Source: Paenirhizobium daejeonense
Lineage (GTDB): Bacteria; Pseudomonadota; Alphaproteobacteria; Rhizobiales; Rhizobiaceae
DNA length: 64,000 nucleotides
Reading direction: 5' to 3'
Assembly: GCF_014280875.1 (NCBI RefSeq)
Contig: NZ_JACLAL010000003.1
Coordinates: forward strand, 558,001 to 622,000
Below the pieces are notes generated by a model, which worked only from the letters and a program-made list of their open reading frames with translations, did no database searches and was not told the origin of the DNA. Position numbers and translations under genes: made by a program. Below, in pieces: positions 23,685-37,181 of the stretch. The stretch's first letter is position 1, and each line of letters starts with the position of its first letter.

Positions 23685-24146
23685 CTAGCCGATCTCGATG
23701 GTTGTTTCGTTCGACATGAGCCAAGCCGACAAAAGTTCGGCTGATACGGTAACCTTATCGGGCTTTCGCAGCGCGCACTCCCAGACTGTTGCCACACGCC
23801 ACCCGCTTTCCAGAAGCGCGGCGCGAACGGTAGCGTCCCGAGCCACGTTTGCCTCGAACTTGGCCTGCCAGAATTCCGGGCGCGTCGATGGAGTGGAGGT
23901 GTAGCGGCAGCCATTATGGCGATGCCAGAAACAGCCATGCACGAAGACAACCGCGTGGTGCTTCGGAAACACGAGGTCTGGTCGTCCAGGGACATGCTTT
24001 GCATGCAGCCGGTACCGGAAGCCACGCGCATGCAGTGCTCGACGAAGAGCCAGTTCGGGCTTCGTATCTTTTCCTCTGATTCCCGCCATCATGCGAGAAC
24101 GGGTCTGCCTGTCGACTATATCCATCATGTGAGCCCTGGTATTCAC
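23685..24146 (-). CDS. vsr: Very short patch repair endonuclease
   Basis: Vsr nicks beside T:G mismatches produced by deamination of 5-methylcytosine, limiting C-to-T mutation at sites methylated by the partner methyltransferase. The 153 residues show the family motifs MAGIRGKDTKPE, GRPDLVF (metal Asp) and GCFWHRH. It is divergent from the adjacent cytosine methyltransferase. Starts at 24146, 24128 or 24125 are all in frame; the conserved part begins at DIVDRQTRS. Confidence 0.95.
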   Translation of the reverse strand: MNTRAHMMDIVDRQTRSRMMAGIRGKDTKPELALRRALHARGFRYRLHAKHVPGRPDLVFPKHHAVVFVHGCFWHRHNGCRYTSTPSTRPEFWQAKFEANVARDATVRAALLESGWRVATVWECALRKPDKVTVSAELLSAWLMSNETTIEIG

Positions 24147-24194: not shown

Positions 24195-25730
24195 ATGCCT
24201 TCCACTTTCGGCATTGTCGATTTGTTCGCCGGCCCGGGGGGGCTTGGCGAGGGCTTTGCGTCCATCGTCGAGGGTGGGCATGCGCCTTTCCGGATCGGAA
24301 TTTCGATCGAGAAGGAGGCATCGGCTCACCGGACCCTGACGTTGCGTGCCTTTCTGCGCGAATACCGGGCACGTCACGATGCCTTGCCCGAACAGTTCAT
24401 CGATTTCCACGCAGGGCTTGTCCCCGAACCGGATTGGTCGGTGGTCGACGCGGAAGCGTGGCGGCTTGCAATTGACGAAGCTCGTGCACTCGAACTCGGC
24501 ACGGAAGCTGCTGCGACTGCGATCGATGGCGCCATCGTGAAGCTGAAGGACAAATACGCCGACACGATCCTCATCGGCGGCCCGCCCTGTCAGGCTTACT
24601 CCCTGGTGGGGCGCGCCCGGGCCAAAGGCAAGGTCGGCTATGTTCCCGAGAAGGATGGACGGCACTACCTTTTCCGCGAGTACATCCGGGTGCTCGACAG
24701 GCTTCGGCCCGCTGCCTTCGTGATGGAAAACGTCAAGGGCATGCTGTCCTCGACGGTCGAGAGCCGCCTCGTCTTCGAGATGTTAATGGAGGACCTGTCC
24801 TCACTCGGTACGGGCCACGGTCATCACTACGAATTGCGGGCGATCCGGTTGGCGGATGGGAAGGCCAGCCTGCAGGAGGCGGTGCAGTCGTCGGATTTCA
24901 TCGTGCGCGCCGAGAACTTCGGTGTTCCACAGCGACGCCACAGGGTTATCATCGTCGGAATCCGCTCCGACCTTGCGAGCAGGGCCGCCGGTGCGGAGAT
25001 CGCCGTCTCCAGGATGAAGCGTACGGTGGGCGATACCCTCGGGACAATGCCCGCGCTGCGCAGCGGCATCAGCCGTGGTTGGGACAACGCGACCACTTGG
25101 CGACATGAGGTCGTCGACGCGGCGAAACTACTGGCCGACATCTACACGGTGCAGGACGGCGGCTCGCTTCGGGAAGCCTTCGCCTCCGCTGCCAAGCGAA
25201 TGAAAGAGGAGGCGCCGGTCCGTCGGGCCGCGTCATGTATGCCGGAAGGCTACGGCATATCGAACGATGAACTGTTGCGCTGGCTTGATAGGCCTGAGCT
25301 GCGCGCCATTGCCCAGCACGAGACACGCGGGCACATGGCATCGGATCTCGGGCGCTATCTGTTCGCCGCCGTGTTCGGAGCCGTACGCGGCTATAGCCCG
25401 AAAGCTGCCGATTTTCCCCTGGCGCTCAGCCCGGATCACCGCAACTGGCACAGCGGCGCCTTCAATGACCGCTTTCGGGTCCAACTGGCTGACGAGGCTT
25501 CGACCACTGTCACAAGCCACATCTCGAAGGATGGCCACTACTTCATCCATCCGGATCCGATCCAGTGCCGGAGCCTGACGGTGCGTGAAGCAGCCCGGCT
25601 GCAGACCTTCCCCGACGACTACCTGTTCCTCGGGAATCGAACCCAGCAGTACGTCCAAGTCGGAAATGCCGTGCCGCCGTTTCTCGCGCGTCAAATCGCT
25701 AAATTGGTCCTTTCAGCCCTGACTTCTTGA
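24195..25730 (+). CDS. C5 cytosine-specific DNA methyltransferase
   Basis: This 511-residue enzyme methylates cytosine at C5 in a specific sequence that I cannot predict. All main motifs are intact: motif I near VDLFAGPGGLGEGF, the catalytic PCQ in GGPPCQAYS (Cys132), ENV in FVMENVKGM, QxRxR-type VPQRRHRVIIVG and the C-terminal VQVGNAVPP. It differs clearly from the decayed relative at 52619. It is convergent with the HNH gene (18-bp overlap of the 3' ends) and pairs with vsr, supplying self-protection for the operon opposite. Confidence 0.95.
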   Translation: MPSTFGIVDLFAGPGGLGEGFASIVEGGHAPFRIGISIEKEASAHRTLTLRAFLREYRARHDALPEQFIDFHAGLVPEPDWSVVDAEAWRLAIDEARALELGTEAAATAIDGAIVKLKDKYADTILIGGPPCQAYSLVGRARAKGKVGYVPEKDGRHYLFREYIRVLDRLRPAAFVMENVKGMLSSTVESRLVFEMLMEDLSSLGTGHGHHYELRAIRLADGKASLQEAVQSSDFIVRAENFGVPQRRHRVIIVGIRSDLASRAAGAEIAVSRMKRTVGDTLGTMPALRSGISRGWDNATTWRHEVVDAAKLLADIYTVQDGGSLREAFASAAKRMKEEAPVRRAASCMPEGYGISNDELLRWLDRPELRAIAQHETRGHMASDLGRYLFAAVFGAVRGYSPKAADFPLALSPDHRNWHSGAFNDRFRVQLADEASTTVTSHISKDGHYFIHPDPIQCRSLTVREAARLQTFPDDYLFLGNRTQQYVQVGNAVPPFLARQIAKLVLSALTS

Positions 25731-26849
25731 TCGGTTGGTGCTGATCAGCGCTGCTCTTGCGTCGTCCATTGACCACCAAGGGCGTTGAGCATGTATCATG
25801 CGGTGGCAGTTCGAACAGACCAAGGCTAGGTCACTCAAGTTGGTCTTTCCTTGCTCACCGAGCAACGAAATGGGCAAGATATGGTGACATTCGATGAATT
25901 CCCGCCCCCTCTCTCCATACGTTTGCAAGAAATCGAAGCCGCAAACCTCACAGGCAAGACAGCCGTGCTTTCGTAGCGCGGCTTCCTTCTTTTTCTTTAC
26001 GAGTGTAAGGTTACGCTCTCTGGAAAGATGAACTCGGGTCATTATTCGACCTTCTGGTGCTTCGAATTCGATATCGCCGAAAGTCGCCGCCTCGGCATCG
26101 CTAGTGCCAATTAACTTCAAAATCCCGGTTGCAACACGCGCTACTTCGTCCGTACGTCCCGAAAACTCCTCCCAAAGCTTAGCTTCAAGCCCGTTGCCAT
26201 TGGGCAGGCCCTTTCTGCCGTTTTCAGTGTATTGGGGGTCATAAGAACTGAAGTTTCGCAACTTCATGGCGATTGCATCTGGTGTTCGCAAAAGCACTTC
26301 GTGTCCCGTCAGACCCAAGGTCTCGCCAACCTTCGCGATACGCTGCGTGAGTTCGCCAATTTCCTCGGATTCAGGACGAGGATCATAGTTGCGATTATTC
26401 AGATGATAATCCAATGCAATGATTAGCTCATCACGGGTCCAGTCTGGGTTTCGGCGTCGCCCAGGTCTTCCGAAAAACTCTCGAACTTTGTTGAGCAGCT
26501 CTTCATCGCTGCGGCGTATCCAATGATCGTGGACTGCTCGATCTCGTTCGCTGAGTTCAGCTCCTCGCTTCTGACCATCTGACCAGCCCTTTCGACCATT
26601 GTCGAAAAGGGAATCGAATATATCACGTGTATTCCTGAGCGTATGGCGAAACTGTTGTTGAGAGCGACCGTCCGAAAGTACGTCAAAGAACAGATCGTAC
26701 GCACCATTCCAGCTATCGACGCCCAGTGAGGCAGGGGGCCTCGGTACTTCGCCATCTGAAAATTCTGTGCAACGGGAGAGAAAGTACCCGACCAATATAA
26801 TGTCGTCGGATCGTTTCCGTGTCTCGCCGATGTCTCGAATTTTCGCCAT
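25713..26849 (-). CDS. HNH endonuclease
   Basis: A 378-residue putative nuclease. The C-terminal ~100 residues form a zinc-bound HNH domain: CEVCGFDF, then ECHHILPISLL and LALVCSNCHRMIH. The N-terminal ~250 residues are not recognised and may bind DNA or partners. The frame is open upstream into the AIPR gene, but MAKIRDIGE at 26849 gives a 22-bp gap after AIPR and a natural start. Last gene of the WYL-to-HNH operon; probably one of its DNA-cutting effectors. Confidence 0.85.
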   Translation of the reverse strand: MAKIRDIGETRKRSDDIILVGYFLSRCTEFSDGEVPRPPASLGVDSWNGAYDLFFDVLSDGRSQQQFRHTLRNTRDIFDSLFDNGRKGWSDGQKRGAELSERDRAVHDHWIRRSDEELLNKVREFFGRPGRRRNPDWTRDELIIALDYHLNNRNYDPRPESEEIGELTQRIAKVGETLGLTGHEVLLRTPDAIAMKLRNFSSYDPQYTENGRKGLPNGNGLEAKLWEEFSGRTDEVARVATGILKLIGTSDAEAATFGDIEFEAPEGRIMTRVHLSRERNLTLVKKKKEAALRKHGCLACEVCGFDFLQTYGERGREFIECHHILPISLLGEQGKTNLSDLALVCSNCHRMIHAQRPWWSMDDARAALISTNRSRSQG

Positions 26850-26871
26850 TTCTGTAATGACCGAATGATCT

Positions 26872-28674
26872 CTATTGCTTGATTTCAGGAATGGACGAGG
26901 AATGAGGCGGGTAGTTCGCTGTTCTAACTTTAGCCCACGTGTCCGGACGTTTCGCCACTTCTGAAATCTGCTGGCCTGGGGCAATCCTGTTGAACTCGGC
27001 GTTCACGATGACCGCCCAGTCCCAGAGTAGATCCCGCAGACCACCTGAAATCCCCTGTCGCATCCAGATTTGCTCAAGGTTGAGCCTGTCGCCGAGTCGG
27101 TCGGCAACGATCGACACGACATAGGTGGCGATGTTCACCCACCCCTGACGGAAAATCTCCTTCGCTTCTTTCGTCTTGATCATGCTTTCGATTGCCTTGA
27201 ACAAGATGACCTTTGCGATCATCGCCCGATACCAGGGGGCATCGAGCGGGTTCGGGACAATGGTCGGATCATCATCAAGAGCACTCATGAACGCTGAGAA
27301 GTTTTTCTCGCCTGCCATTGCGACTTGACTCGGCTTTCCGCGCCACGCTTCGTGGTACTTCGCAATGTCGTTCTTGGCCAGCTTGCGTTTTGGCGGGATC
27401 ATCTCCTGCAACTTCCGACGCTTCGGCGGAGTGTTGCCATCTCTCAGCAACATCACGTTGTATGCGCCAGCCGCACGCTCATAGAACCACCGTGTTGTGC
27501 CGTCGGGGCACCATGTCTCGTTTGCCAGCTTTTCAAGCTGGACATGGAACGGACGGTTCGCCGACAGGTCGGACATCTTCACAGCGTTCTGACTGTTCGC
27601 ATAGCGGGAGACGTTGCTGATCAGCCGCTCGCGTGCTTCATCGTGCGACACCTTGAGAATGATGATCTTCGCCGGGACCATGACATGACTCAGGTCGATG
27701 GTCCGATCGTCGCGGGACGCGAAATAGATGGTCGAGGTCGTCTGGCCGCCGTTTACGATCTGCAGGCCTTTCAGAAACGAAAGACCCAAGTTCCCGTCGT
27801 CAGACTGCTCGAACGCCGCTTCGTCGCAGACGAGGACAAGTCCGTTGTTGAATGCAAGGAAGTGCTCCGGTTCCTTTCGCAACGTTTCGACGATCCCCTT
27901 GTTCACCGCGCGCTTTGCGCCGAGGAAGGTCCGGACATTGGCTTCAAGCAGACGAGTACCGAAACGCAGGTAAAGGTCGCGGATGACCTGCCCCGGAATT
28001 GCAGTCAGGGCGTACTCGTAATCAGCATCCGGATCCGGGACATGGACACAGGGGAGCGGTCGGCCGATCGACTGGACAAAGCTGAGGGCGAGCTCATCTC
28101 GAGGCTTGCCGTCGGTGTGACGGAACAGCCTCTCCATGTCCATGGCCTCGACAGCGACCATCTTGCTGTGGACCTCCTTGTTCGAGAAGCGTTTGGTCTT
28201 GGTCTTGCCATCAGTGATCACGAACACCCGAAGGCGGTCGATATCGCTCCAGCGGGACCGGATAGTCGCGACCAAATCGCGGACCGGATGAGTGGGGTCA
28301 ATCTTCGCGTCGAGATTTCCGCTCGCCGCGCGAAACAAAAAACGCACGCCTTCACTGGCGGTGGCTGTAGCATCCGTGTCGGCCAGATCTTGCAGTTGGT
28401 CAGTGCCAAAATAGTGGGTCACGAACAGGTCTAGGGTTGTTTCATCGGAGCTGAGAGCATAGCCCGTGATGCGAAGCTTCACGTTGCCGACCTTGCCGTT
28501 CCAGTGGCAGACGGTCGGCTCGTCACAGATCCCGGTGTCCGCGACGTGCTCCATTACCTTTTCCGCAAAGACAAGTTCCTCCGAAGGAAAGGGCCCTTCT
28601 CCAGCCTCAACGCGCTCGGCAATGGTCGTTTGCAGGTCGGATCGGAAGTTGCGGTGAAATTCTTCAAGGCTCAT
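26872..28674 (-). CDS. AIPR-family protein (abortive phage infection related)
   Basis: A 600-residue protein of the AIPR family, named after abortive-infection phage resistance proteins and often found in restriction-type operons. Typical segments are FLAFNNGLVLVCDEA, LKGLQIVNGGQTTSTIYFA and VSRYANSQNAVKMSDL. Molecular activity is not established. I prefer the ATG at 28674, one base after the upstream stop, over a TTG at 28689. Part of the long defence operon. Confidence 0.88.
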   Translation of the reverse strand: MSLEEFHRNFRSDLQTTIAERVEAGEGPFPSEELVFAEKVMEHVADTGICDEPTVCHWNGKVGNVKLRITGYALSSDETTLDLFVTHYFGTDQLQDLADTDATATASEGVRFLFRAASGNLDAKIDPTHPVRDLVATIRSRWSDIDRLRVFVITDGKTKTKRFSNKEVHSKMVAVEAMDMERLFRHTDGKPRDELALSFVQSIGRPLPCVHVPDPDADYEYALTAIPGQVIRDLYLRFGTRLLEANVRTFLGAKRAVNKGIVETLRKEPEHFLAFNNGLVLVCDEAAFEQSDDGNLGLSFLKGLQIVNGGQTTSTIYFASRDDRTIDLSHVMVPAKIIILKVSHDEARERLISNVSRYANSQNAVKMSDLSANRPFHVQLEKLANETWCPDGTTRWFYERAAGAYNVMLLRDGNTPPKRRKLQEMIPPKRKLAKNDIAKYHEAWRGKPSQVAMAGEKNFSAFMSALDDDPTIVPNPLDAPWYRAMIAKVILFKAIESMIKTKEAKEIFRQGWVNIATYVVSIVADRLGDRLNLEQIWMRQGISGGLRDLLWDWAVIVNAEFNRIAPGQQISEVAKRPDTWAKVRTANYPPHSSSIPEIKQ

Positions 28675-28675
28675 G

Positions 28676-29680
28676 TCAATCCAGTCCAAATTCTTTGATC
28701 AGTTCCGAAAGTCCGATTGAGGGGATTTCGAGGGCGTCAAGGTCGAGCACATAGGCAGCTGAGCGGATGGCCGCTGGCAGCGCGGCGCGCGTAAGGCGCG
28801 GCATATCACCTTCCACACGGAGTGCTCTTGCATCCTTCAATGTCAGCGTTCGCCCGTAGAGCGGTGCATGTTCGTCGAGGTACCCCATCACCATGAGCAA
28901 CGCCTCGAATCCGCGCTGCACTCCGGCCAGTCCCAACCTCTCGCGGAGTTCGGACACGAGACCGGCAAGTGAGATTCCGTCCGTATTTTCCTCAAAGCGG
29001 AAGGCTGAGAGGAAAATGGGTGTCCTGTCACCATCCAGCTGCTCGATACTGTTGATCCGCGCGAGGAAGCTGCCGGTCCGAACCGTGCTTTTCACCTCTA
29101 TCGCGCCACCCCGAACATGGAAGTCCTGCGCCGCTCGCAACGGTCCCTGCCAGCAGTCGAGGGCACCGGCTCCAAGGGAAGTGTCCGCGAGCAGCCTGAG
29201 CATCCACAGCTCGCCGAGCAGGCCGATCTGCACATCGGGCGAGAGTGGGCGGTGCGTTCGAGCCATGAAGGCCTGCCACTCCCTGACCCGCTCAAGGAAG
29301 GCGTCCAGGACATCCCGGTTCGCTGTGCTGGCTGCGGCTTCCAACGTCCTCAAGACATCGACGACCATTATAGCGAAGATATCTGGTGACCCCTCGGGCC
29401 GCCTCACGAGAGCGATAGCCGTCTTCCCGGCAAAGACACTTTGACCTTCGATGCATGAGACGTCGAAGCCCTTGCCTTCGGGCAGCCTTGCCGGATTGAC
29501 CGGCCATGATCCGGGAAAGGAGACGATCAACGCTTCCCGACCAAGAGGAAAGTGACAACCCGCCTCGACCGAGACAGCACCCATTCCAGTGAGGTGGACA
29601 AATCGCCAGTCTTCCGCCGCCTCCTGGCGCGCGAGCGCTCGCCACGCACGTGCGAGCCCGTCTTCAGTCCACCCACTCAT
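28676..29680 (-). CDS. PD-(D/E)XK motif protein of the Z1/AIPR cluster
   Basis: A 334-residue putative nuclease or nuclease-fold subunit. The active-site pattern is visible: a Glu in LLGELWMLRLL, an Asp in AAQDF and the IEVKST strand, followed by GSFLARINSIEQL. It belongs to the family that co-occurs with Z1 and AIPR genes. The ATG at 29680 overlaps the Z1 gene by 17 bp; the open frame upstream of it lies inside Z1. It probably supplies cleavage to the complex. Confidence 0.85.
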   Translation of the reverse strand: MSGWTEDGLARAWRALARQEAAEDWRFVHLTGMGAVSVEAGCHFPLGREALIVSFPGSWPVNPARLPEGKGFDVSCIEGQSVFAGKTAIALVRRPEGSPDIFAIMVVDVLRTLEAAASTANRDVLDAFLERVREWQAFMARTHRPLSPDVQIGLLGELWMLRLLADTSLGAGALDCWQGPLRAAQDFHVRGGAIEVKSTVRTGSFLARINSIEQLDGDRTPIFLSAFRFEENTDGISLAGLVSELRERLGLAGVQRGFEALLMVMGYLDEHAPLYGRTLTLKDARALRVEGDMPRLTRAALPAAIRSAAYVLDLDALEIPSIGLSELIKEFGLD

Positions 29681-32531
29681 TAAGGCCTCCCCACAGTACG
29701 CTATTGGCGATGTACCTCGAGTTGGAGACCCTTCTCTCGGAAGTGCTTGACGGAAAACTGATTGCCCAAGCAACGACGGGATCGGCATCCTTCAACTCAT
29801 CGACGCCAGCACCCTCGGGATCGAGCAGATAAAGCATGAGCAGGCCACGTTCCCGGCGAGCCGGTATGTCCGCTTCGGCGACGCCTTCTCCAAGTATGTG
29901 ACGAATCTGCGGACCTCTCGGTTCGGACGGCGGCTCCTTGCCTTCGTTTCGATCCGTGTCATTGCGCCAGGTCTTCTGGCTGAGATCGCGCGCAGCCTTC
30001 CATTCCGGCTCGGTCAGATCGATGGCCTGATCGCGAGGCGAGATCAGGGTCTTGATCGAATATCGATCCGCATGTTCGGTCGTTCTCCTCCGCTTCAGCA
30101 TGTTGACCGAACAACCGCTGACCGTCCGGTACTTGTCGTCCGGACCGCTGTCCTTTCCGATCAGCGCAACCGTCCAGCTCGTGAGCTCGCGATCCTTGTT
30201 CATCTCCTCGATGAAGTCCGCAATCAGCGGACTCATGATGCGGAAGCTGGCGGGGTGGGTCCTGTAGTCCCGCAGAAACGAGATGACGTTCAGGGCTGAC
30301 ACATCCCGCCAAAGATGACCGTACCACTTCTGACCTTGCGGAACGAAATGCTGATCGTTCAGATCCGTCGACGGGCCAAGTGAACCGATGAACCGATCCG
30401 AAGCATTGAAGTTTGCAGTGATGTCATCCTTCCGGTTGGGAAACACGATGGTCTGCAGAAGATCGCCCGAATAGGTCAGCTGCATCGCGCGAGCGTTTCT
30501 CATCTTGGCCCGAGAGGTCACGGTCAGCACTGAGTGCGATTTCACGCGGAGGCCGAACTGCTTGGGCGTGGCGCCCGCCGCGACCATGTTGTCGAATTCT
30601 TGGCGCAGCTCTTCCGCGGCATCGGCGATGTGGCCGAACCACTCCACCATTTCCTGCGACGTGTAGAGGCGGCAGACATCAAGGTATCCATCGCGGTAGC
30701 CGAACCACCGCCCCATCTGCATGAGTGTGTCATACATGCGTGCGGTTCGCAGAAAATAGCTGGTGCAGAGACCTTCGAGCGTCAGGCCACGCGCCAGCTT
30801 GTCGCCGCCGATGGCAATTACCTTGAGGCCGGTGCCATCGTTCTCGGCATAATCAAGTGCGTCCTTCGCCGTGCCGTTGATCTCTCGCACGCGAAAGTCC
30901 GATAGGACATCGGGGAGGACGGAACGAATGTCCGCCCACGAGAAGTCCTCCAGCGTTTCCCCTTCGACCAGGGCAGAACGGATTCCCTGCATGCCTGGCA
31001 GAAAGGTCTCTTCATACTCCTTGCGCATGGACGCCTCGAGGTCCGCAAGTTCGATGCCGCGGGTGTAGCGGCCCTTCAGATCTCGCACGTACTCGGCGAC
31101 CTGGTTTACGACGGCGTTCTGTACCGAGGTGAAGCGGGTAACGTGGATGAGCATCGAGGAATGCTTGCTGCCCTGTCCCCGGAGCTTCCGCACCCCACAG
31201 GCATAGACGAAGGAACGGATCGCTTCTGCTAGCGAGTCCGGCACACGGTCCTCTCCCTGCCATCGCGGTCGGTAGCCGTTCTTGTGTCGTGCCGGCATCC
31301 ACGGCTGGAACTCGTCGTCCAATAGCGGGCGCACCAAGGGCAGGTCTTCGGGCGTGCTGGAGGCCGATCCGAACACGCGTCCCGGCCCGACGTAGTTCGA
31401 TGGTGCTGCAAGGCTGGTGATGAAGGCTGCCGGGAAAAGGTCCGGTCCGTGCTCCTGTGTCTGCCCGCGGTCATGGATGAAGATGTTTGCGAAGGGCGTG
31501 GCCGTGTAGCCTACATAAGCCTTCCGCGAGAAGTGGTGGAGGACCGACCGGATCAACCTGTTGATGGTCTTGGGCTCATGTTCGAGATCCGGGTTGCCGA
31601 ACTCGTCCACGACGTCTTCGCCCGTGTCGACCGATCCATGATCGGACTCGTCATCGATCACCAGGAGAGGCAGATTGGTGACGAGCTTTCGACCCGTTTC
31701 AGGGTCGACCTGATTGGCGACACGGTTGCGGATCCAGTGCCGCAGGCGCTCGAGGACCGTCTTGTTCTTCTTGACCACGAATAGCCATGGTCGCTGTTCG
31801 GGGCTGATGTTCATCTTTGCCGCAAGGGCCGTATTGAAGTCGCCCTTGTCGCTTCGATTGGTTGCGGCGTTGGGACGAACGGACGTGTCCTTGTCGATCA
31901 GTCCCACACCGACTGCAGGGAGATCGTCGGCGTCAGCGATGGTGGCAAAGCCAAGGAACCCCTCGTCAAGGCGGATCTGTGTCTGGGCTCTCAGGTTGTT
32001 GTGCAGGCCGGCGAGCACGATGATGATCTTGTAGCCGGCGTCGGCGGCCTTGCAGATCAGCCCGGTGTAGTTGCCGGTCTTTCCCGACTGAACGTGACCC
32101 ACGACCAGACCACGACGATCCCATGCGCCTTCCCGGGTGGGGTCCTCGATTTGCGACAGGACTTCATCGGTGGCGACGTCGAGGGCGTCGAGGGCCGTCC
32201 AGGGGATGCGCGCCTCCATGTACTCGGAATAGCGCTGCCAGTATGTCCAGCCCTTCTTCCTTTCCGCATCGAGCCAGGCGACATGGTCTTCGCCGCTCGA
32301 TAGGGTGGCATTAGCGCCAACAGTGCGGCTCGACCTGCGGATCAGTTCGTCAACGAGCGCGTTCCGATCGATGAGGGCAAAGTCCTCCTCCATCATGATA
32401 GCAAGCTTATTCAGCTCCCTTTCGATCATTTCCGGAGTGACAGCACTTTGGGCGCGCTCCGCAGCAAGGCGGAGCATATTCTGCGCCATGGAAAGGATTG
32501 AATCAAAAGCCTTTTGGTTCGAAATCATCAT
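29664..32531 (-). CDS. Z1-domain superfamily II helicase-like ATPase
   Basis: A 955-residue nucleic-acid-dependent ATPase. Helicase motifs are in order: Walker A GHVQSGKTGN near residue 150, the Walker B analogue LLVIDDESDHG, motif III VGYTATPFANIFI, and the C-terminal GGDKLARGLTLEG with MQMGRWFGYR carrying the arginine finger. The Z1 domain is known from gene clusters with GHKL ATPases and nucleases. Its ATG overlaps the GHKL stop by 4 bp (ATGA). It is probably the motor that moves on or remodels DNA. Confidence 0.92.
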   Translation of the reverse strand: MMISNQKAFDSILSMAQNMLRLAAERAQSAVTPEMIERELNKLAIMMEEDFALIDRNALVDELIRRSSRTVGANATLSSGEDHVAWLDAERKKGWTYWQRYSEYMEARIPWTALDALDVATDEVLSQIEDPTREGAWDRRGLVVGHVQSGKTGNYTGLICKAADAGYKIIIVLAGLHNNLRAQTQIRLDEGFLGFATIADADDLPAVGVGLIDKDTSVRPNAATNRSDKGDFNTALAAKMNISPEQRPWLFVVKKNKTVLERLRHWIRNRVANQVDPETGRKLVTNLPLLVIDDESDHGSVDTGEDVVDEFGNPDLEHEPKTINRLIRSVLHHFSRKAYVGYTATPFANIFIHDRGQTQEHGPDLFPAAFITSLAAPSNYVGPGRVFGSASSTPEDLPLVRPLLDDEFQPWMPARHKNGYRPRWQGEDRVPDSLAEAIRSFVYACGVRKLRGQGSKHSSMLIHVTRFTSVQNAVVNQVAEYVRDLKGRYTRGIELADLEASMRKEYEETFLPGMQGIRSALVEGETLEDFSWADIRSVLPDVLSDFRVREINGTAKDALDYAENDGTGLKVIAIGGDKLARGLTLEGLCTSYFLRTARMYDTLMQMGRWFGYRDGYLDVCRLYTSQEMVEWFGHIADAAEELRQEFDNMVAAGATPKQFGLRVKSHSVLTVTSRAKMRNARAMQLTYSGDLLQTIVFPNRKDDITANFNASDRFIGSLGPSTDLNDQHFVPQGQKWYGHLWRDVSALNVISFLRDYRTHPASFRIMSPLIADFIEEMNKDRELTSWTVALIGKDSGPDDKYRTVSGCSVNMLKRRRTTEHADRYSIKTLISPRDQAIDLTEPEWKAARDLSQKTWRNDTDRNEGKEPPSEPRGPQIRHILGEGVAEADIPARRERGLLMLYLLDPEGAGVDELKDADPVVAWAISFPSSTSERRVSNSRYIANSVLWGGLNEWVD

Positions 32532-34033
32532 TGCGTGTCTTTCACTTCAAGGGCTGAAATCAGATCAAGATGCCGGTCGAATGGGGGCGTGCGGCCGAGC
32601 CGTTCGCGCGCCTCCGTCGGGCTGAGTCCACGAAACTTCACGAGTGCTTCAAACATCGAGGATAGCGTATCCATCACGTCGTTGTCGGGTGCCCCGGCAA
32701 AACCTGTCCTAGGCGTCTCCTTGTCTTCCGCGGTATCCAGCCAGATGCGCTGAACGGGAACTGTTTCCTCGATGAGCCGGAGGAGTGCTAGGATGTCGGG
32801 CTTGAGTGAGCCGGCGCGATTCAGGATCGACGCGACAAGGTCGTGGTCGCGGGCAATCCGGTAGGACGTCCCTTGTGCTGAACGCCGCGCCTGCCAAGCC
32901 TCCGCTACAGCGTTCGAGCGTGTGCCCGAAACCGGCGTGATGTGGCCCCGGTGGGCAAAAACCCGTCTCGCGGTGTCGCGGGTTTCCGATGCCAGGCGGT
33001 GAAGCTGGGATCGCAGTCGTACCGGCGGACCGGCCGTCGACTTCAGGACATTGATCTTCCATTCGGCGTCCGCGCTGTTTGGTATGTCGAGCCGGATGCG
33101 TGCAAGCCTATGGGCTTCATCGCGCGGCCATGGTTTGCCGCCATCGCCGAGGCCCAGCCAGCCCCCGGCGAGAAGGAGACGCCTGTTGCGATAGACGTAG
33201 AAGCCCTCCTGCTGCGTCCATCCTCCGGGTCCGGCGGCGGCTTCCTGCTCGGTGGGCTTGAGCATGTCGCGGTGCGGAAGGACATGGCATTGAACCGTCA
33301 CACCCGTGGTGTGGAGGATTCGATACTCGGGGCTTTCGAGCGCCTTGCCGGGATGTCCCATCAGGTACGGATCCCAAGGCTTCACCTCTCGGGCGTTAAG
33401 AAGGAGGCGAAGTCTAGGCTGCTGACCGTCAAGAAGGCGATGAAAGGTCATCGCAAGATGCGCCTCGACGCGATCAGCAAGCTCGATCATGTCGGTGGCG
33501 GCGAAGCCATCGGTCACGATACGGTCCAGTTTCTCCCAGAGAACGACCGTGCCGTGGGCCATCTGGTCAAGCGGCGCAAGCAGATGCTCAGACCCCGGCG
33601 CTGGTCCCTCAAAGAGTGGCCATTCGGCGCCTGGCTCCTGACCGATGAGATCGAGGTCCCAGCGCAGGCACACGACAGGTCCACCGTTCTGCCGACTGGC
33701 TACGGTCAATCGCCGAGCCTGCGAGAAACTTGCTGTCTTCAGCCCCAGCCCGAAGCGCCCGAGGTCGCTGGTGGAGCGTTCAGCCCGCGGATCGCGTGCG
33801 CCGAGCCGCATTCCGGCCTCCAGAGCAGCGTCATCCATGCCGTCGCCGTCATCAACGATCCGAACCCAGCTCTCCAGACCAGCCCATTCGAGATGAACGG
33901 CGACTTCGCTCGAATTCGCAGCAATGGAATTATCGACCAGATCGGCAAGTGCAGTAGGAGGTGCGTAGCCGAGACCGCGAAGAGACTCGAGCATCGAACC
34001 GGCATGAGGAGGAGCATTTCTTACACCCGCCAT
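32528..34033 (-). CDS. GHKL ATPase, MutL/MORC-like
   Basis: A 501-residue ATPase of the gyrase-Hsp90-kinase-MutL fold. Motif I is ALADLVDNSIAA, motif II DDGDGM and motif III GRFGLGLKTASFS. The usual catalytic Glu of motif I is Asp here. MutL/MORC-like GHKL proteins in restriction operons are thought to act as ATP-gated clamps on DNA. The ATG at 34033 overlaps the sigma-factor stop (TGATG); a GTG at 34036 is also possible. The C-terminal third is not recognised. Confidence 0.9.
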   Translation of the reverse strand: MAGVRNAPPHAGSMLESLRGLGYAPPTALADLVDNSIAANSSEVAVHLEWAGLESWVRIVDDGDGMDDAALEAGMRLGARDPRAERSTSDLGRFGLGLKTASFSQARRLTVASRQNGGPVVCLRWDLDLIGQEPGAEWPLFEGPAPGSEHLLAPLDQMAHGTVVLWEKLDRIVTDGFAATDMIELADRVEAHLAMTFHRLLDGQQPRLRLLLNAREVKPWDPYLMGHPGKALESPEYRILHTTGVTVQCHVLPHRDMLKPTEQEAAAGPGGWTQQEGFYVYRNRRLLLAGGWLGLGDGGKPWPRDEAHRLARIRLDIPNSADAEWKINVLKSTAGPPVRLRSQLHRLASETRDTARRVFAHRGHITPVSGTRSNAVAEAWQARRSAQGTSYRIARDHDLVASILNRAGSLKPDILALLRLIEETVPVQRIWLDTAEDKETPRTGFAGAPDNDVMDTLSSMFEALVKFRGLSPTEARERLGRTPPFDRHLDLISALEVKDTQ

Positions 34034-36216
34034 CACAACCCCAGCAATTCTTGGAGGCGACGCTTGCGACCAGGATGGGAAAGACGATCGAGACCCTTCG
34101 CCTCGATCTGGCGAATGCGTTCGCGCGTCACTCCATACAGCTGGCCGATCTCCTCGAGGGTCATGTCGGCGTCACGCCCGATCCCGAAGCGCATCCGGAT
34201 CACATCAGCCTGACGCTCCGGCAGTTCAGCCAGTGCGTCCGTCACGATCCTTTCGGTCTCTGCCTGATCGAAGACATTCGCTCCCACCTGCTCGGACAGC
34301 AAATTATCCCAGTCGTCGATGCTATCGGGATACTCGACCTCACGGGGAATCCCGCGAAACTGTCTCACCTCGTCAGTTGTCCATTCCAGTTCAGCGGCGA
34401 GTTCATGGTCGGAAACAGTGCCGTCAACCCGGACTTCGAGCCTTTCCATGGCACGATCAAGCTTGGCGATTTTCTCGTTCCGATGCACCGGGATACGGAT
34501 TGCTGCGCCTTCATCAGCGCGCCATCGTACAATGGCCTGCCGCATCCAGTAGGTGGCATAGATCAGGAAGCGATAACCGCGCTCCGGATCAAAGCGCCGT
34601 GTGGACCGCTGCAGACCCACGAACGCCACTTGGAAGACGTCTTCCGGTTCTTCGCCTTCCTCCACGTTCCGTGCTGCAAAGCGCCGTACGTAAGACAGGT
34701 GCTCGCGGACAAGGTGCTCGGTGACAGCTTCGAAGACCAGAATCTGTGCATCCAACTGGATGGCATGCTCTTGGCACTCGGGGTCCTGTTCCAGGATGCG
34801 GACCAACTCCTTGTGAAAAGCCAGAGAGAAATCGAACGCTTCGAGCGCCGCAAGCGCTTCTCTTCGCCGTTTACCGTCCATCACGCGACCATTGGTCTGC
34901 CAGGACTTCAGGGCCTCCGCAGCGGCCATGAATTCGGCAGTCTCGGTGTGGCCCGGACGCGAAGGAATGATGGTCCTCAGCGAGACAGAACCGGGGTCTC
35001 GAAACCCGGCGCGGATGTTGTCGACGACATTGAGGATCGTTTCGACGGCAGCTTCGGAAGCGAGAATTCCCAGCTGAAGCTCCTGCTTTGCCCGTACCAT
35101 GGGCTCCAGCAGCTGCAGTTCGGCGGACTTATCCATGACGAAGCGCTGCGTGCCGGGTAGCCGCGTCGCACGAGTAAGGGCTGCCTCAATCGCTTCAGCC
35201 AAGTCGTCGGGCGATATGTCCGATCTGGTGTCCCAGAACTCGACATTATACCTGTTCACCTGATCGACCAGATCGAAGCCCGCAGCTTCCAGGTTGCGCT
35301 GGAGGTTGACGCGCAGTTCCTCTAAATCACCATTGCCTTCGCAAAGGGCAACCAGCCGGTCGATATCATCGAAAGAGCACCATCCCTTCGCCAGAGTTTC
35401 CACTGCCCAATTGATGCAGATCTCCGGATCGATCGACAGTCGCGTGCCGGTCTGGACGACAGCGCGTCTGACCGATTGTCGGCCACGATTGCGGACCCTC
35501 AGGAAGTCATGCTCTGCACCATGATCGGCGACTCCTGCCGCTCTAGCGCTGATGCCCTCTCCGACAATCTGTGCAGGTGAAAGGTCTAGATCCCAATCCC
35601 CGTAATCATCATCCGAAATAGCAGGTGCCGAACTGACGAGCGCGACAAATGTCCCCGCAACCATTTTGCCCGTGTACTGGCCGAAGAATTCCTCGGGCTC
35701 TTCCTCGGCCTCGAAACTCAGGAGACCATCGAGGTCGTCAGTTGTATCGTCCGGACCCGTCTCTTGGATCAAGGTGAGGCGACGCTCTGGAACTGCATCA
35801 GTATCAACCGGGGTGGTCTCGATCTCCGAGATATCATCGTGGTCGTCGACCGGCTGGGGCTCCGGTGACCTCGCAACAAGCGAAGACAGCAGCTGCGCGG
35901 CGAAACCATGCCCTTCGGCAAATGCCACATCAGCGGGTGTCTGCCGGTCATGGTTCCGTGATGTGGGATTGGCCCCCGACCGAATGAAGAGATCGCAAAC
36001 GGCAAGATTCCCCGTGCGCGCGGCAAGGTGGAGCGGCGTGTCTCCCTTGGGGTCGGTCGCGTGCAGGCGAGAGGATGCCGCGAAATTGGTAAGTCTCTCG
36101 AGTTTCCCTTCGGCAATCAGCCGAATCTCGACAGGGTCGAGAACATGGCTTTCCGGTTCGCTCGTCAACCGGGCGCGACTGCCGAGGATACGGGACAGTC
36201 TATCCATGATCTTCAT
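34033..36216 (-). CDS. Sigma-70-family factor with N-terminal ankyrin repeats
   Basis: A 727-residue fusion. Residues about 54-115 are two ankyrin-type repeats (KGDTPLHLAARTGNLAVCD, then GANPTSRNHDRQTPADVAFA). Residues 120-200 are acidic and probably disordered; 260-500 are helical and resemble a sigma non-conserved region. Residues 500-595 match sigma region 2 (RGYRFLIYATYWMRQAIVRW, IRIPVHRNEKI), with region 3 after it, and 660-727 match region 4 (RMRFGIGRDADMTLEEIG, VTRERIRQIEAKGLDRL). The match is to group-1 (RpoD-like) factors. The start at 36216 has GGGAGG six bases upstream; the longer open frame lies inside the WYL gene. It could transcribe the operon itself or redirect RNA polymerase. 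Confidence 0.9.
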   Translation of the reverse strand: MKIMDRLSRILGSRARLTSEPESHVLDPVEIRLIAEGKLERLTNFAASSRLHATDPKGDTPLHLAARTGNLAVCDLFIRSGANPTSRNHDRQTPADVAFAEGHGFAAQLLSSLVARSPEPQPVDDHDDISEIETTPVDTDAVPERRLTLIQETGPDDTTDDLDGLLSFEAEEEPEEFFGQYTGKMVAGTFVALVSSAPAISDDDYGDWDLDLSPAQIVGEGISARAAGVADHGAEHDFLRVRNRGRQSVRRAVVQTGTRLSIDPEICINWAVETLAKGWCSFDDIDRLVALCEGNGDLEELRVNLQRNLEAAGFDLVDQVNRYNVEFWDTRSDISPDDLAEAIEAALTRATRLPGTQRFVMDKSAELQLLEPMVRAKQELQLGILASEAAVETILNVVDNIRAGFRDPGSVSLRTIIPSRPGHTETAEFMAAAEALKSWQTNGRVMDGKRRREALAALEAFDFSLAFHKELVRILEQDPECQEHAIQLDAQILVFEAVTEHLVREHLSYVRRFAARNVEEGEEPEDVFQVAFVGLQRSTRRFDPERGYRFLIYATYWMRQAIVRWRADEGAAIRIPVHRNEKIAKLDRAMERLEVRVDGTVSDHELAAELEWTTDEVRQFRGIPREVEYPDSIDDWDNLLSEQVGANVFDQAETERIVTDALAELPERQADVIRMRFGIGRDADMTLEEIGQLYGVTRERIRQIEAKGLDRLSHPGRKRRLQELLGL

Positions 36217-37105
36217 GGACAACCTCCCTGTTGAGAAGCACGATCTGCTGATCCTGCGGCTTCCTTGCACCGGGATCGGTATCAAGCCCGAGACGCCTGA
36301 GCGCATAATACAGCAGCGCGCGCCGGACCTTGATCTTGGCCTTGCCCCCACGCATCCCGTAGTCGAGGGCGATGACCTTCGCTTGGGCTTCCGAAAGGGC
36401 AGGGTGGGGTCCAATCTCCAGTGTGACCTCAATATTCCAGTCGCGGTCATCCTCCGCAGGCACGCCGCTCTCCTGCGACCCACGAATTTCAAGCATCCGG
36501 GAGAGCAAGAAGTCCTTGAACGCCTCGTCAGCAAGGCAGAATGCCCGGGTGTGCCAGCGGAATCCGTCGAAACCGATGGCGTGGGGAGCAATCCAGCGCC
36601 AACGCGGCTCAGGGCTGGATAGGGACTGGTACCTCACCTCGATTGCCTGGGAGTGTCGAATGGCACCGACCACCGACCGGAGCGTTACCGGATTGACGCC
36701 ACGCACAGGTGTCGGGGCAGATGCGAAGGATGGAAGATTAGCGACCCAAGAGTCCTCGCGGTCGAGGATTCCGTCAGCCACCGACCGCAATTGGGTGAGA
36801 TAGCGACTCGCGTCTGGCTCGAGGAACAGAGGCTTGAAATCCGAGCCGCGGATATAGGTCCGTGCACTCTTATCATACACCATGTTGTCTGGCGCGAAGC
36901 CGATGTAACGGTTCAGGTCGGTGGATGCTTGGTTCACCGAGAGCCCGAATTGCTCCATCAGGTCGCTACGATTCACATGCCCCTCCCAAAACAGGCGGAA
37001 CTCTATGAACTCGAGACGCTGCTCGACTCCCCAGCGAAGTTCGGACCTCACGTTGTCCACCACGGCCCCCAAATCATGATGCGCATGAAAACTATGCGCG
37101 CCCAT
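36200..37105 (-). CDS. WYL-domain transcriptional regulator, BrxR/CapW-like
   Basis: A 301-residue DNA-binding regulator. A winged helix at the N-terminus (RLEFIEFRLFWEGHVNRSDL) and the segment DNMVYDKSARTYI resemble BrxR/CapW proteins that repress BREX, CBASS and other defence operons. A WYL domain follows at about residues 145-210 (IEVRYQSLSS, WIAPHAIGFDGFRWHTRAFC), thought to sense nucleic acid or a nucleotide signal. First gene of the operon and overlapping the sigma gene. The ATG at 37105 lies only 13 bp from TTGACA, so a GTG 14-18 codons in (VVDNVRSEL) may be the true start. Confidence 0.88.
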   Translation of the reverse strand: MGAHSFHAHHDLGAVVDNVRSELRWGVEQRLEFIEFRLFWEGHVNRSDLMEQFGLSVNQASTDLNRYIGFAPDNMVYDKSARTYIRGSDFKPLFLEPDASRYLTQLRSVADGILDREDSWVANLPSFASAPTPVRGVNPVTLRSVVGAIRHSQAIEVRYQSLSSPEPRWRWIAPHAIGFDGFRWHTRAFCLADEAFKDFLLSRMLEIRGSQESGVPAEDDRDWNIEVTLEIGPHPALSEAQAKVIALDYGMRGGKAKIKVRRALLYYALRRLGLDTDPGARKPQDQQIVLLNREVVHEDHG

Positions 37106-37143
37106 TTTTTGGGCCTATGTCAAGCTAGTCAATGGATCCCTGC

Positions 37144-37181
37144 GTGGCAATCACAATTCTTGGTGGCAATCACAATTCTTG
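37144..37181. repeat. Perfect tandem 19-bp repeat upstream of the WYL gene
   Basis: GTGGCAATCACAATTCTTG occurs twice with no gap (37144-37162, 37163-37181), followed by a partial third copy GTGCAAT. It lies 39 bp before the WYL start in the 127-bp gap after the XRE gene, suiting an operator for cooperative binding. On the minus strand TTGACT and TTGACA follow at 37132 and 37123. Confidence 0.7.

What the first reader, a model, noticed from the sequence alone, without database searches (positions are those of the whole stretch)
34033..36216. RpoD-like sigma factor fused to ankyrin repeats inside a restriction-type defence operon
Regions 2, 3 and 4 of a group-1-type sigma factor are all recognisable (RGYRFLIYATYWMRQAIVRW, VTRERIRQIEAKGLDRL) behind two ankyrin repeats and an acidic linker. 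It is coupled to a BrxR-like WYL gene before it and a GHKL ATPase gene after it. Possible roles: private transcription of the operon once a repressor lets go, capture of core RNA polymerase during infection, or a decoy for phage anti-sigma proteins, with the ankyrin part as sensor. I know of no characterised defence system with this fusion, but cannot search.
Basis: partly seen in the sequence, partly recalled or inferred. Interest (0 to 1): 0.9.

Follow-up and report, generated by a model that had tools for sequence, protein, structure and literature searches.

The report
MZA defence system's own sigma factor
The gene is the sigma-factor subunit (MzaA) of a known but poorly understood anti-phage system called MZA, normally fused to ankyrin repeats; conserved residues and promoter elements suggest that the restriction machinery brings its own transcription starter, which remains to be tested.

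Summary
'No characterised system' is wrong: the next four genes are MzaB-E, so this is MzaA of an MZA anti-phage system, a divergent member with WYL repressor, HNH gene, m5C methylase and Vsr. Ankyrin is the norm: 62 of 69 MzaA scanned, and the RefSeq-named E. coli MzaA.

What the sigma does is open. Core-binding and -35 residues are almost invariant and regions 2 and 4 are under purifying selection, against a dead decoy. A promoter-plus-operator shared by 10 loci occurs once in the host genome, at this operon; TGTAGAATT precedes mzaA in 8 of 65 loci. The N-terminal part co-diverges with MzaE, the sigma part does not. Best reading (0.45): a private, self-controlling sigma for the restriction half, its arm docked to the effector. 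That MzaA reads these promoters, and that the arm binds MzaE, is inferred, not shown.

The parts
34033..36216 (-). mzaA: ankyrin domain + acidic arm + nearly complete sigma-70 (727 aa)
35869..36138 (-). ankyrin domain, residues 27-116 (three helix pairs)
35437..35868 (-). disordered acidic arm, residues 117-260, with W208 conserved in 90% or more of the rows
35242..35436 (-). sigma region 1.1-like, residues 261-325
   Evidence: hhalign 91%, E 1e-6
34777..35211 (-). sigma region 1.2 and short non-conserved region, residues 336-480
34492..34719 (-). sigma region 2 (core binding, -10), residues 500-575
34036..34491 (-). sigma regions 3 and 4 (-35 helix: R698 E699 R702 Q703), residues 576-727
36200..37063 (-). 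WYL repressor, BrxR/CapW family; start more likely a GTG at 37063 or 37060 than the listed ATG at 37105, which lies inside the palindrome (inferred from the alignment)
37122..37150 (-). promoter-like element TTG-N20-TAGCTT (-35 37150-37145, -10 37127-37122), conserved in 10 loci
37100..37114 (-). operator-like palindrome GCCCA-N5-TGGGC just downstream of the -10
32528..34036 (-). mzaB, GHKL ATPase
29664..32531 (-). mzaC, Z1 domain protein
28676..29680 (-). mzaD, DUF4420 PD-(D/E)XK (ORF from 29788; start at 29680 inferred)
26872..28689 (-). mzaE, AIPR effector candidate
25713..26984 (-). HNH endonuclease, last gene of the operon
24195..25730 (+). m5C DNA methyltransferase, convergent with the operon
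23685..24146 (-). Vsr mismatch endonuclease, divergent from the methyltransferase

Best explanation
This is MzaA, the sigma subunit of a divergent MZA system that here lies with an m5C methylase, Vsr and an HNH nuclease, so a restriction-modification-like defence. Most likely mechanism: MzaA is a working, dedicated initiation factor. It joins core RNA polymerase and reads the promoter of the restriction operon that encodes it (WYL-mzaABCDE-HNH), while the methylase and Vsr, on the far side and divergent from each other, have promoters of their own. Expression of the dangerous half therefore starts late and feeds back on itself, as with controller (C) proteins of restriction-modification systems but with a whole sigma factor; the BrxR/CapW-type repressor sits on a palindrome just downstream of the -10 and sets when it starts. 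The ankyrin domain and acidic arm dock a protein of the system, best candidate MzaE, and so tie sigma activity to the state of the effector. Shown: the gene order, the sigma domains, conservation of core-binding and -35 residues, purifying selection, a conserved promoter-plus-operator unique in the genome, co-divergence of the N-terminal part with MzaE. Inferred: that MzaA (not RpoD) reads that promoter, that the repressor binds the palindrome, that the arm binds MzaE, and the delay.
For: Core-contact residues (E. coli numbering recalled) D403 69/69, Q406 68/69; W434, Q437, R441 each 67/69; -35 residues R-E-R-Q 69/69. Median dN/dS among 11 near relatives (55 pairs): region 2 0.055, region 4 0.10, like MzaB 0.10 and MzaC 0.06; acidic arm 0.30. 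-10 contact T440 is T in 31/31 RpoD but 32/69 MzaA, and the near relatives with WYL also change T429, S428 and W433: a changed -10 surface. TTG-N20-TA(GC/CG)NT plus palindrome is shared by 10 of 11 loci tried (exact GCCCA-N5-TGGGC in 7, one mismatch in 3); the composite pattern occurs once in 5.13 Mb, at this operon. TGTAGAATT occurs 10 times in 65 loci, 8 of them 53-159 nt upstream of mzaA. Four members carry a GcrA-like DNA-binding module at the C-terminus, two of them also in the arm (L052's C-terminal one by alignment only). N-terminal part versus MzaE partial r 0.44 (bootstrap 0.28-0.54), sigma part versus MzaE -0.18 (0.44 and 0.46 for the first with ranks and Poisson distances). In one clade without mzaA, MzaE changed at 17 of 199 conserved columns (8.5%; control maximum 5.7%), B, C and D within the control range; the methylase gene abuts mzaB there.
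Against: No direct evidence that MzaA reads either element; RpoD might. A canonical -35/-10 scan upstream of mzaA is near chance (4 of 49 loci without WYL, 0 of 15 with WYL at p<0.05). The strict near-relative pattern is absent upstream of mzaA in 11 of 11 other loci close to the window's (10 without a WYL hit, L058 with a distant one); only L054 has something like it, TTG-N20-TAGGTT. TGTAGAATT was picked after a k-mer scan, has no conserved -35 by eye, and is missing upstream of mzaA in 57 of 65 loci and in two E. coli copies. Methylase and operon are not always apart: in 13 of 68 loci the methylase is upstream on the same strand. Seven of 75 systems have no sigma, yet keep mzaBCDE. A private sigma has no obvious need of regions 1.1 and 1.2. 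The co-divergence uses pairwise distances of related loci; the N-terminal part also tracks MzaD (0.26) and its own sigma part (0.31). The loss clade is one event, and at 5 of the 17 changed MzaE columns all four loci have the window's residue, so recombination may explain it.
Confidence: 0.45

Rival explanations
1. RNA-polymerase-docked effector: MzaA enters holoenzyme at promoters, phage ones included, and its ankyrin arm carries MzaE (or the MzaB-E complex) there, so that the effector is armed or delivered where foreign DNA is transcribed, with methylation as the self mark.
For: Sigma is close to complete RpoD; mzaA and mzaB overlap; the N-terminal part co-diverges with MzaE more than with its own sigma part; MzaE is changed in a clade without mzaA.
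Against: Systems without sigma keep mzaBCDE (7 of 75). Changed -10 residues argue against matching the general promoter set of RpoD. No binding shown.
Confidence: 0.2
2. Sentinel or decoy: an RpoD look-alike that phage anti-sigma or RNA-polymerase-takeover proteins bind; binding frees or arms the effector through the ankyrin arm.
For: RpoD regions that phage proteins are known to target (1.1, 4; recalled) are present. mzaA is reported as fast-evolving with positive selection in Sigma70_ner (PMC10924106, passages seen). Among 44 distant loci mean identity is 38% for the sigma part and 29% for the N-terminal part, against 58-60% for MzaB, MzaC and MzaE and 43% for MzaD.
Against: A decoy need not keep -10/-35 contacts and would hardly gain GcrA-type DNA-binding modules. 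Region 2 is the slowest part. The published positive selection could include RpoD hits, not checked.
Confidence: 0.15
3. Infection-proof transcription: a spare sigma that keeps defence genes expressed when the phage has disabled RpoD.
For: Holoenzyme determinants kept.
Against: The same region 4 would be hit by the same anti-sigma proteins; no other place in the genome carries the promoter pattern. Overlaps with the best explanation.
Confidence: 0.1
4. Accessory or dispensable passenger sigma with no role in defence.
For: Absent in 7 of 75 loci.
Against: Present in 68 of 75, each time on the same strand with its ORF end within 300 nt of the mzaB ORF start (overlap up to 300, gap up to 41); co-diverges with MzaC (Mantel r 0.85 over 68 loci; 0.43 among 48 distant ones, 0 of 999 permutations as high); purifying selection.
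Confidence: 0.05

Closest known systems
MZA anti-phage system (mzaABCDE; NCBIfam NF041931-NF041935, PADLOC PDLC02203-02207; Gao et al. 2020, recalled, text not held)
   Same: Same five genes in the same order; sigma-70 MzaA with ankyrin and acidic arm, as in the RefSeq-named E. coli copy.
   Different: All five subunits lie below NCBI's equivalog cut-offs. Here a WYL repressor, HNH, m5C methylase and Vsr lie with the system; two E. coli copies have no methylase annotated in about 19 kb.
Z1 / PD-(D/E)XK / cytosine methylase / AIPR system, 'type II' of Miller et al. 2022 (PMC9523054, section 11 read)
   Same: Z1, PD-(D/E)XK, cytosine methylase and AIPR together, with a MORC (GHKL) protein and a regulator often beside them; the authors note likeness to mzaABCDE.
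   Different: There mzaA is reported only in a few systems; here, and in 68 of 75 loci found as the closest to this MzaC, it is present.
BREX and other defence loci with BrxR-family repressors (PMC9122601, passages seen)
   Same: WYL repressor gene at the head and an inverted repeat just downstream of its promoter.
   Different: No sigma factor gene is mentioned in the passages seen.
Controller (C) proteins of type II restriction-modification (recalled; reviews seen only in a search listing)
   Same: Works like: a self-activating regulator that delays restriction behind methylation.
   Different: C proteins are small HTH regulators (recalled); MzaA is a nearly complete sigma factor. Delay not tested.
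RpoD (group 1 sigma-70)
   Same: Regions 1.1, 1.2, 2, 3, 4 in order.
   Different: Ankyrin and acidic arm, short region 3.2, changed -10 contacts; the cell has its own RpoD elsewhere.

Membership tests
MZA system | mzaA-B-C-D-E in one operon in this order | tested here: met
   PADLOC MzaA E 1.5e-32 (residues 495-722 only), MzaB 1.9e-169, MzaC 0, MzaD 7.7e-54, MzaE 2.8e-158, all minus strand with overlapping ends
MZA system | NCBIfam equivalog cut-offs of the five subunits | tested here: not met
   243/800, 658/850, 1168/1500, 284/420, 698/1050 bits: a divergent relative, not an equivalog by NCBI's rule
MZA system | MzaA layout of the RefSeq-named E. coli copy: ankyrin, acidic arm, sigma | tested here: met
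   E. coli MzaA Ank 44-75, sigma r2 442-510, r4 608-661; same in the window
MZA system | protects against phage | not testable with these tools
   needs a phage challenge
Group 1 sigma-70 (RpoD) | regions 1.1, 1.2, 2, 3, 4 | tested here: met
Group 1 sigma-70 (RpoD) | core-binding and -35 residues | tested here: met
   D403, Q406 and R-E-R-Q kept in the window; E407 is V
Group 1 sigma-70 (RpoD) | RpoD -10 contacts (T429, W433, T440; numbering recalled) | tested here: not met
   I, Y, V in the window; RpoD 31/31 T, W, T
Group 1 sigma-70 (RpoD) | is the principal sigma of the cell | tested here: not met
   another gene at G000:C12 scores 401 bits over the RpoD cut-off of 354; this one 147
BrxR/CapW repressors (the WYL gene) | homology to solved BrxR and CapW | tested here: met
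   CapW E 1e-67, BrxR E 3.8e-44
BrxR/CapW repressors (the WYL gene) | inverted repeat just downstream of the promoter | tested here: met
   GCCCA-N5-TGGGC 7 nt after the -10-like hexamer; shorter than the 11-bp BrxR repeats
BrxR/CapW repressors (the WYL gene) | represses its promoter | not testable with these tools
   needs reporter or gel shift
Miller 2022 type II system | Z1 + PD-(D/E)XK + cytosine methylase + AIPR | tested here: met
   Pfam hits in P0004, P0005, P0008, P0006; sequence comparison with their members not done
C-protein-controlled restriction-modification | methylase expressed before restriction | not tested
   only gene layout seen

The most novel reading that the evidence does not exclude
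A restriction system that carries its own RpoD-type sigma as a physical part: the ankyrin arm tethers the AIPR effector MzaE to RNA polymerase holoenzyme, so that both the private transcription of the restriction genes and the arming of the effector depend on the same sigma-effector complex. In some alphaproteobacterial members the sigma has further gained GcrA-type DNA-binding modules, which in GcrA itself read methylated DNA (recalled), raising methylation-read transcription of a defence operon.
Probability: 0.2. Interest if true: 0.85.

Novelty: new member of a known kind. Interest (0 to 1): 0.5.

Why it matters
MZA is in PADLOC and NCBIfam, yet none of the papers listed by my searches of the held library says, in the title, abstract start or passages I saw, what its sigma factor does (one search listed 25 of 64, 25 of 2,579, mostly unrelated). 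If MzaA is a private sigma, defence operons can own part of their transcription machinery, which would explain how a restriction system enters a naive host safely and stays on while a phage takes over RNA polymerase. The promoter, the operator, the residues to mutate and a candidate partner (MzaE) are now named, so the question can be tested directly.

Tried and rejected
Novel fusion: rejected; PADLOC, NCBIfam and E. coli RefSeq annotation name it MzaA and the E. coli protein has ankyrin too.

Artefact: rejected; relatives 70-79% identical over the alignment.

Dead sigma or lost region 2 in some members: region 2 columns were empty in about 19 of 69 rows of the first alignment. This came mostly from my cut of the last 245 residues: of 13 sequences printed, 10 have 118-178 residues from the -35 helix on, and region 2 stands before the cut; the other 3 had only failed my search pattern. 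All 15 rechecked have region 2 by HMM, L051 weakly (20 bits).

Canonical sigma-70 promoter upstream of mzaA: not enriched (4 of 49 and 0 of 15). Operator-like palindromes upstream of mzaA: 2 of 65 loci against 0.8 expected, dropped. Two E. coli copies lack TGTAGAATT in the 330 nt upstream of mzaA.

Monophyly of MzaA sigma: not settled. Rooted on one outgroup, the smallest clade with all 69 MzaA holds 103 tips, that is everything else; the 31 RpoD form one clade (0.86). Of 5 outgroup sequences one was not recovered and at least one is doubtful.

Two ankyrin repeats: the model shows three helix pairs.

Vassallo 2022 (PMC9519451) was opened as a supposed MZA source: 0 hits for mza in its main text. 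Iyer 2008 (PMC2292703): 0 hits for sigma, ankyrin, WYL. PMC12479173 only reports finding mza systems in S. suis (passages). Gao 2020 is not held.

Sampling limits and rows dropped: the genome scan kept the best 80 of at least 566 relatives of MzaC, so 68 of 75 speaks for the nearer relatives, not for all Z1 systems. 7 of 82 loci lacked mzaB or enough sequence upstream. The L119 sigma hit was not counted (minus strand, 33 bits, far from mzaB). L052 gave no sequence for the promoter alignment. 4 truncated loci were dropped before the co-divergence test and the near clade left out by design; its 'N-terminal part' is the ORF without the last 400 residues and its 'sigma part' the last 330, both from stop-to-stop ORFs.


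Full report
What is there. The gene lies on the minus strand, 36216-34033, 727 aa. Pfam gives ankyrin 58-88 and sigma-70 regions 2, 3 and 4. The AlphaFold2 model made with 63 MzaA sequences (mean pLDDT 73.7, pTM 0.43) has an ordered ankyrin domain of three helix pairs (about 27-116), a disordered acidic stretch (117-257) and a mostly ordered rest. Residues from about 338 to 727 superpose on E. coli sigma-70 residues from about 90 to 612 (best E. coli rows Z 17-18, rmsd about 12). Profile comparison with 31 RpoD proteins identifies region 1.1 at 263-321 (91%, E 1e-6) and region 1.2 at 352-420 (98.4%, E 8e-15); the acidic arm matches nothing in RpoD residues 1-470. So this is a nearly complete group-1-type sigma behind an ankyrin domain, not only regions 2-4. 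Region 3.2 is short against RpoD.

What it belongs to. The genes after it are MzaB (GHKL), MzaC (Z1), MzaD (DUF4420) and MzaE (AIPR) by PADLOC, NCBIfam and Pfam. All five subunits fall below NCBI's equivalog cut-offs, so the locus is a divergent member. Around it are a WYL repressor of the BrxR/CapW family, an HNH gene, an m5C methylase on the opposite strand and Vsr. The MZA name goes back to Gao et al. 2020 (recalled; reference 52 of PMC9523054; not held). Miller et al. 2022 (PMC9523054, section 11 read) describe a related system of Z1, PD-(D/E)XK, cytosine methylase and AIPR and note that mzaA occurs in only a few. The RefSeq-named E. coli MzaA also has ankyrin and sigma regions 2 and 4, and its N-terminal part aligns with the window's ankyrin and acidic stretch (28% over 169 columns). 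The fusion is therefore the family's normal form.

How general. From an alignment of MzaC, 79 genome loci were fetched, the best of at least 566 relatives, plus three plasmid loci. Of 82 loci, 75 have mzaB and enough upstream sequence; 68 of these have the sigma gene, each on the same strand with its ORF end between 300 nt inside and 41 nt before the mzaB ORF. Of 69 N-terminal parts (window included) 62 match Ank_2 and 61 Ank at E 0.01. A WYL gene like the window's was found beside 16 of the 68, once on the other strand. In an independent search of 398 genomes with the N-terminal part, 75 have a match, nearly all to the ankyrin alone by the ranges listed. Besides the window's own, six match beyond it; five have MzaC on the same contig and the sixth contig ends inside mzaB. 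In the viral collection (81 loci, capped list), 2 of 82 sigma ORFs carry ankyrin; both follow a WYL gene, one continues into MzaB and MzaC, the other is cut by the contig end.

Is the sigma alive. Core-contact residues D403 and Q406 (E. coli numbering recalled) are kept in 69 and 68 of 69; E407 in 45, V in the window; W434, Q437 and R441 in 67 of 69 each. The -35 helix residues R, E, R, Q are kept in 69 of 69. Among 11 near relatives (55 pairs) median dN/dS is 0.055 for region 2 and 0.10 for region 4, like MzaB (0.10) and MzaC (0.06), but 0.30 for the acidic arm, 0.24 for region 1.1 and 0.14 for ankyrin. What differs from RpoD is the -10 reading surface: T440 is T in 31 of 31 RpoD and 32 of 69 MzaA; the window and the eight WYL-bearing near relatives compared also have I for T429, L for S428 and Y for W433.

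Promoters. The pattern TTG-N19..21-TAGCNT-N5..9-GCCCA occurs once in the 5.13-Mb genome, at this operon (control, the pattern read backwards: 0). A repeat right after the promoter mirrors BrxR (PMC9122601, passages seen). Upstream of mzaA in 11 other loci near the window's the strict pattern was not found; 10 have no WYL hit, L058 has a distant one; L054 has TTG-N20-TAGGTT. In more distant loci a k-mer scan brought out TGTAGAATT: 8 of 54 loci, where the commonest 9-mer of 20 background draws reached 4 to 7. It occurs 10 times on both strands of 65 loci, 8 of them 53-159 nt upstream of mzaA on the same strand. T440 is replaced in 7 of those 8 and in 18 of 40 other distant loci (Fisher p 0.05, uncorrected, relatedness ignored). 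Canonical promoters are not enriched upstream of mzaA. None of this shows which sigma reads these elements.

Modules. Two members (L048, L052) have GcrA-like helix-turn-helix modules in the arm (two copies each by eye); L048 has one more at the C-terminus, as have L042 and L062 and, by alignment, L052. The window's protein has no GcrA hit. GcrA is a sigma-70 partner of alphaproteobacteria that reads methylated sites (recalled). Gain of such modules fits a promoter function.

Partner. Over 44 distant loci the pairwise distances of the N-terminal part correlate with MzaE after removing the other subunits (partial r 0.44, bootstrap 0.28-0.54), more than with its own sigma part (0.31) or MzaD (0.26); the sigma part does not track MzaE (-0.18). 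Ranks and Poisson distances give 0.44 and 0.46. Four Pseudomonas-group loci without mzaA form one clade (support 1.0) whose sister L081 has it (0.92). There MzaE is changed at 17 of 199 columns conserved elsewhere (8.5%; control groups mean 1.0%, maximum 5.7%), whereas MzaB (4 of 181), MzaC (7 of 339) and MzaD (2 of 61) are within the control range. It is one event, and at five of the 17 columns all four have the window's residue, so exchange of mzaE is possible. In these four loci the methylase gene abuts mzaB. The other three sigma-less loci form a separate clade. All seven keep mzaB-E.

Methylase linkage. A methylase like the window's was found in 52 of 68 sigma-bearing loci (one-sequence search, contig ends limit it): 29 downstream on the other strand, 13 upstream on the same strand, 7 downstream on the same strand, 3 upstream on the other strand. 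The controller idea fits the window's layout but not every locus.

Mechanism. Best reading: a private, self-reinforcing sigma for the restriction half, held back by the WYL repressor and tied to the effector by the ankyrin arm (0.45). Rivals: effector docked on RNA polymerase (0.2), sentinel for phage anti-sigma (0.15), spare sigma during takeover (0.1), passenger (0.05). The report that mzaA evolves fast, with positive selection in Sigma70_ner (PMC10924106, passages seen), supports a conflict role for part of the protein.

Novelty. The kind is known and the locus is a new, divergent member. No paper listed by the searches for MzaA-E names, for 'MZA' with sigma factor, or for sigma plus ankyrin plus restriction describes the function of the sigma in what I saw of it (one search listed 25 of 64); subscription papers and preprints are mostly not held.

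Noticed in passing
L048:3290-6502, L052:3290-6502, L042:4070-6502, L062:4070-6502: MzaA with GcrA-like helix-turn-helix modules: in the arm plus one at the C-terminus (L048, L052) or one at the C-terminus (L042, L062).
   Followed up: partly
L079, L084, L085, L088, L091, L094, L095, L097, L101, L106, L108, L115, L118 (last 88-148 aa of mzaA): A small C-terminal domain after region 4, several members ending in a motif like GFEFWPGKGYWR; no Pfam match there in the five scanned whole (L095, L106, L108, L115, L118).
   Followed up: partly
window:35593-35595: W208 in the acidic arm is conserved in 90% or more of MzaA rows although the arm is predicted disordered: a candidate short binding motif.
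   Followed up: no
L172:5760-8602 and L173:5291-8142: In two E. coli MZA copies the place of mzaB holds two shorter genes with an IS421 transposase between them, while mzaA, C, D and E are annotated without a pseudogene flag.
   Followed up: no
L065, L067, L073, L075: Pseudomonas-group MZA loci without mzaA and with the methylase directly upstream of mzaB.
   Followed up: partly
window:40115-50202: Mobile genes beside the island: a phage integrase family gene and a neighbour without a Pfam hit, a large serine recombinase, and a TniQ / TniB / Mu-type transposase set.
   Followed up: no
window:37233-37568: An XRE regulator just upstream of the WYL gene with no hit in the 82 related loci (phmmer, E 1e-4), so probably not part of the system.
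   Followed up: partly
L174 and L254: WYL-mzaA on contigs of the viral collection, so the system may travel on prophages, or these are miscalled host DNA.
   Followed up: no
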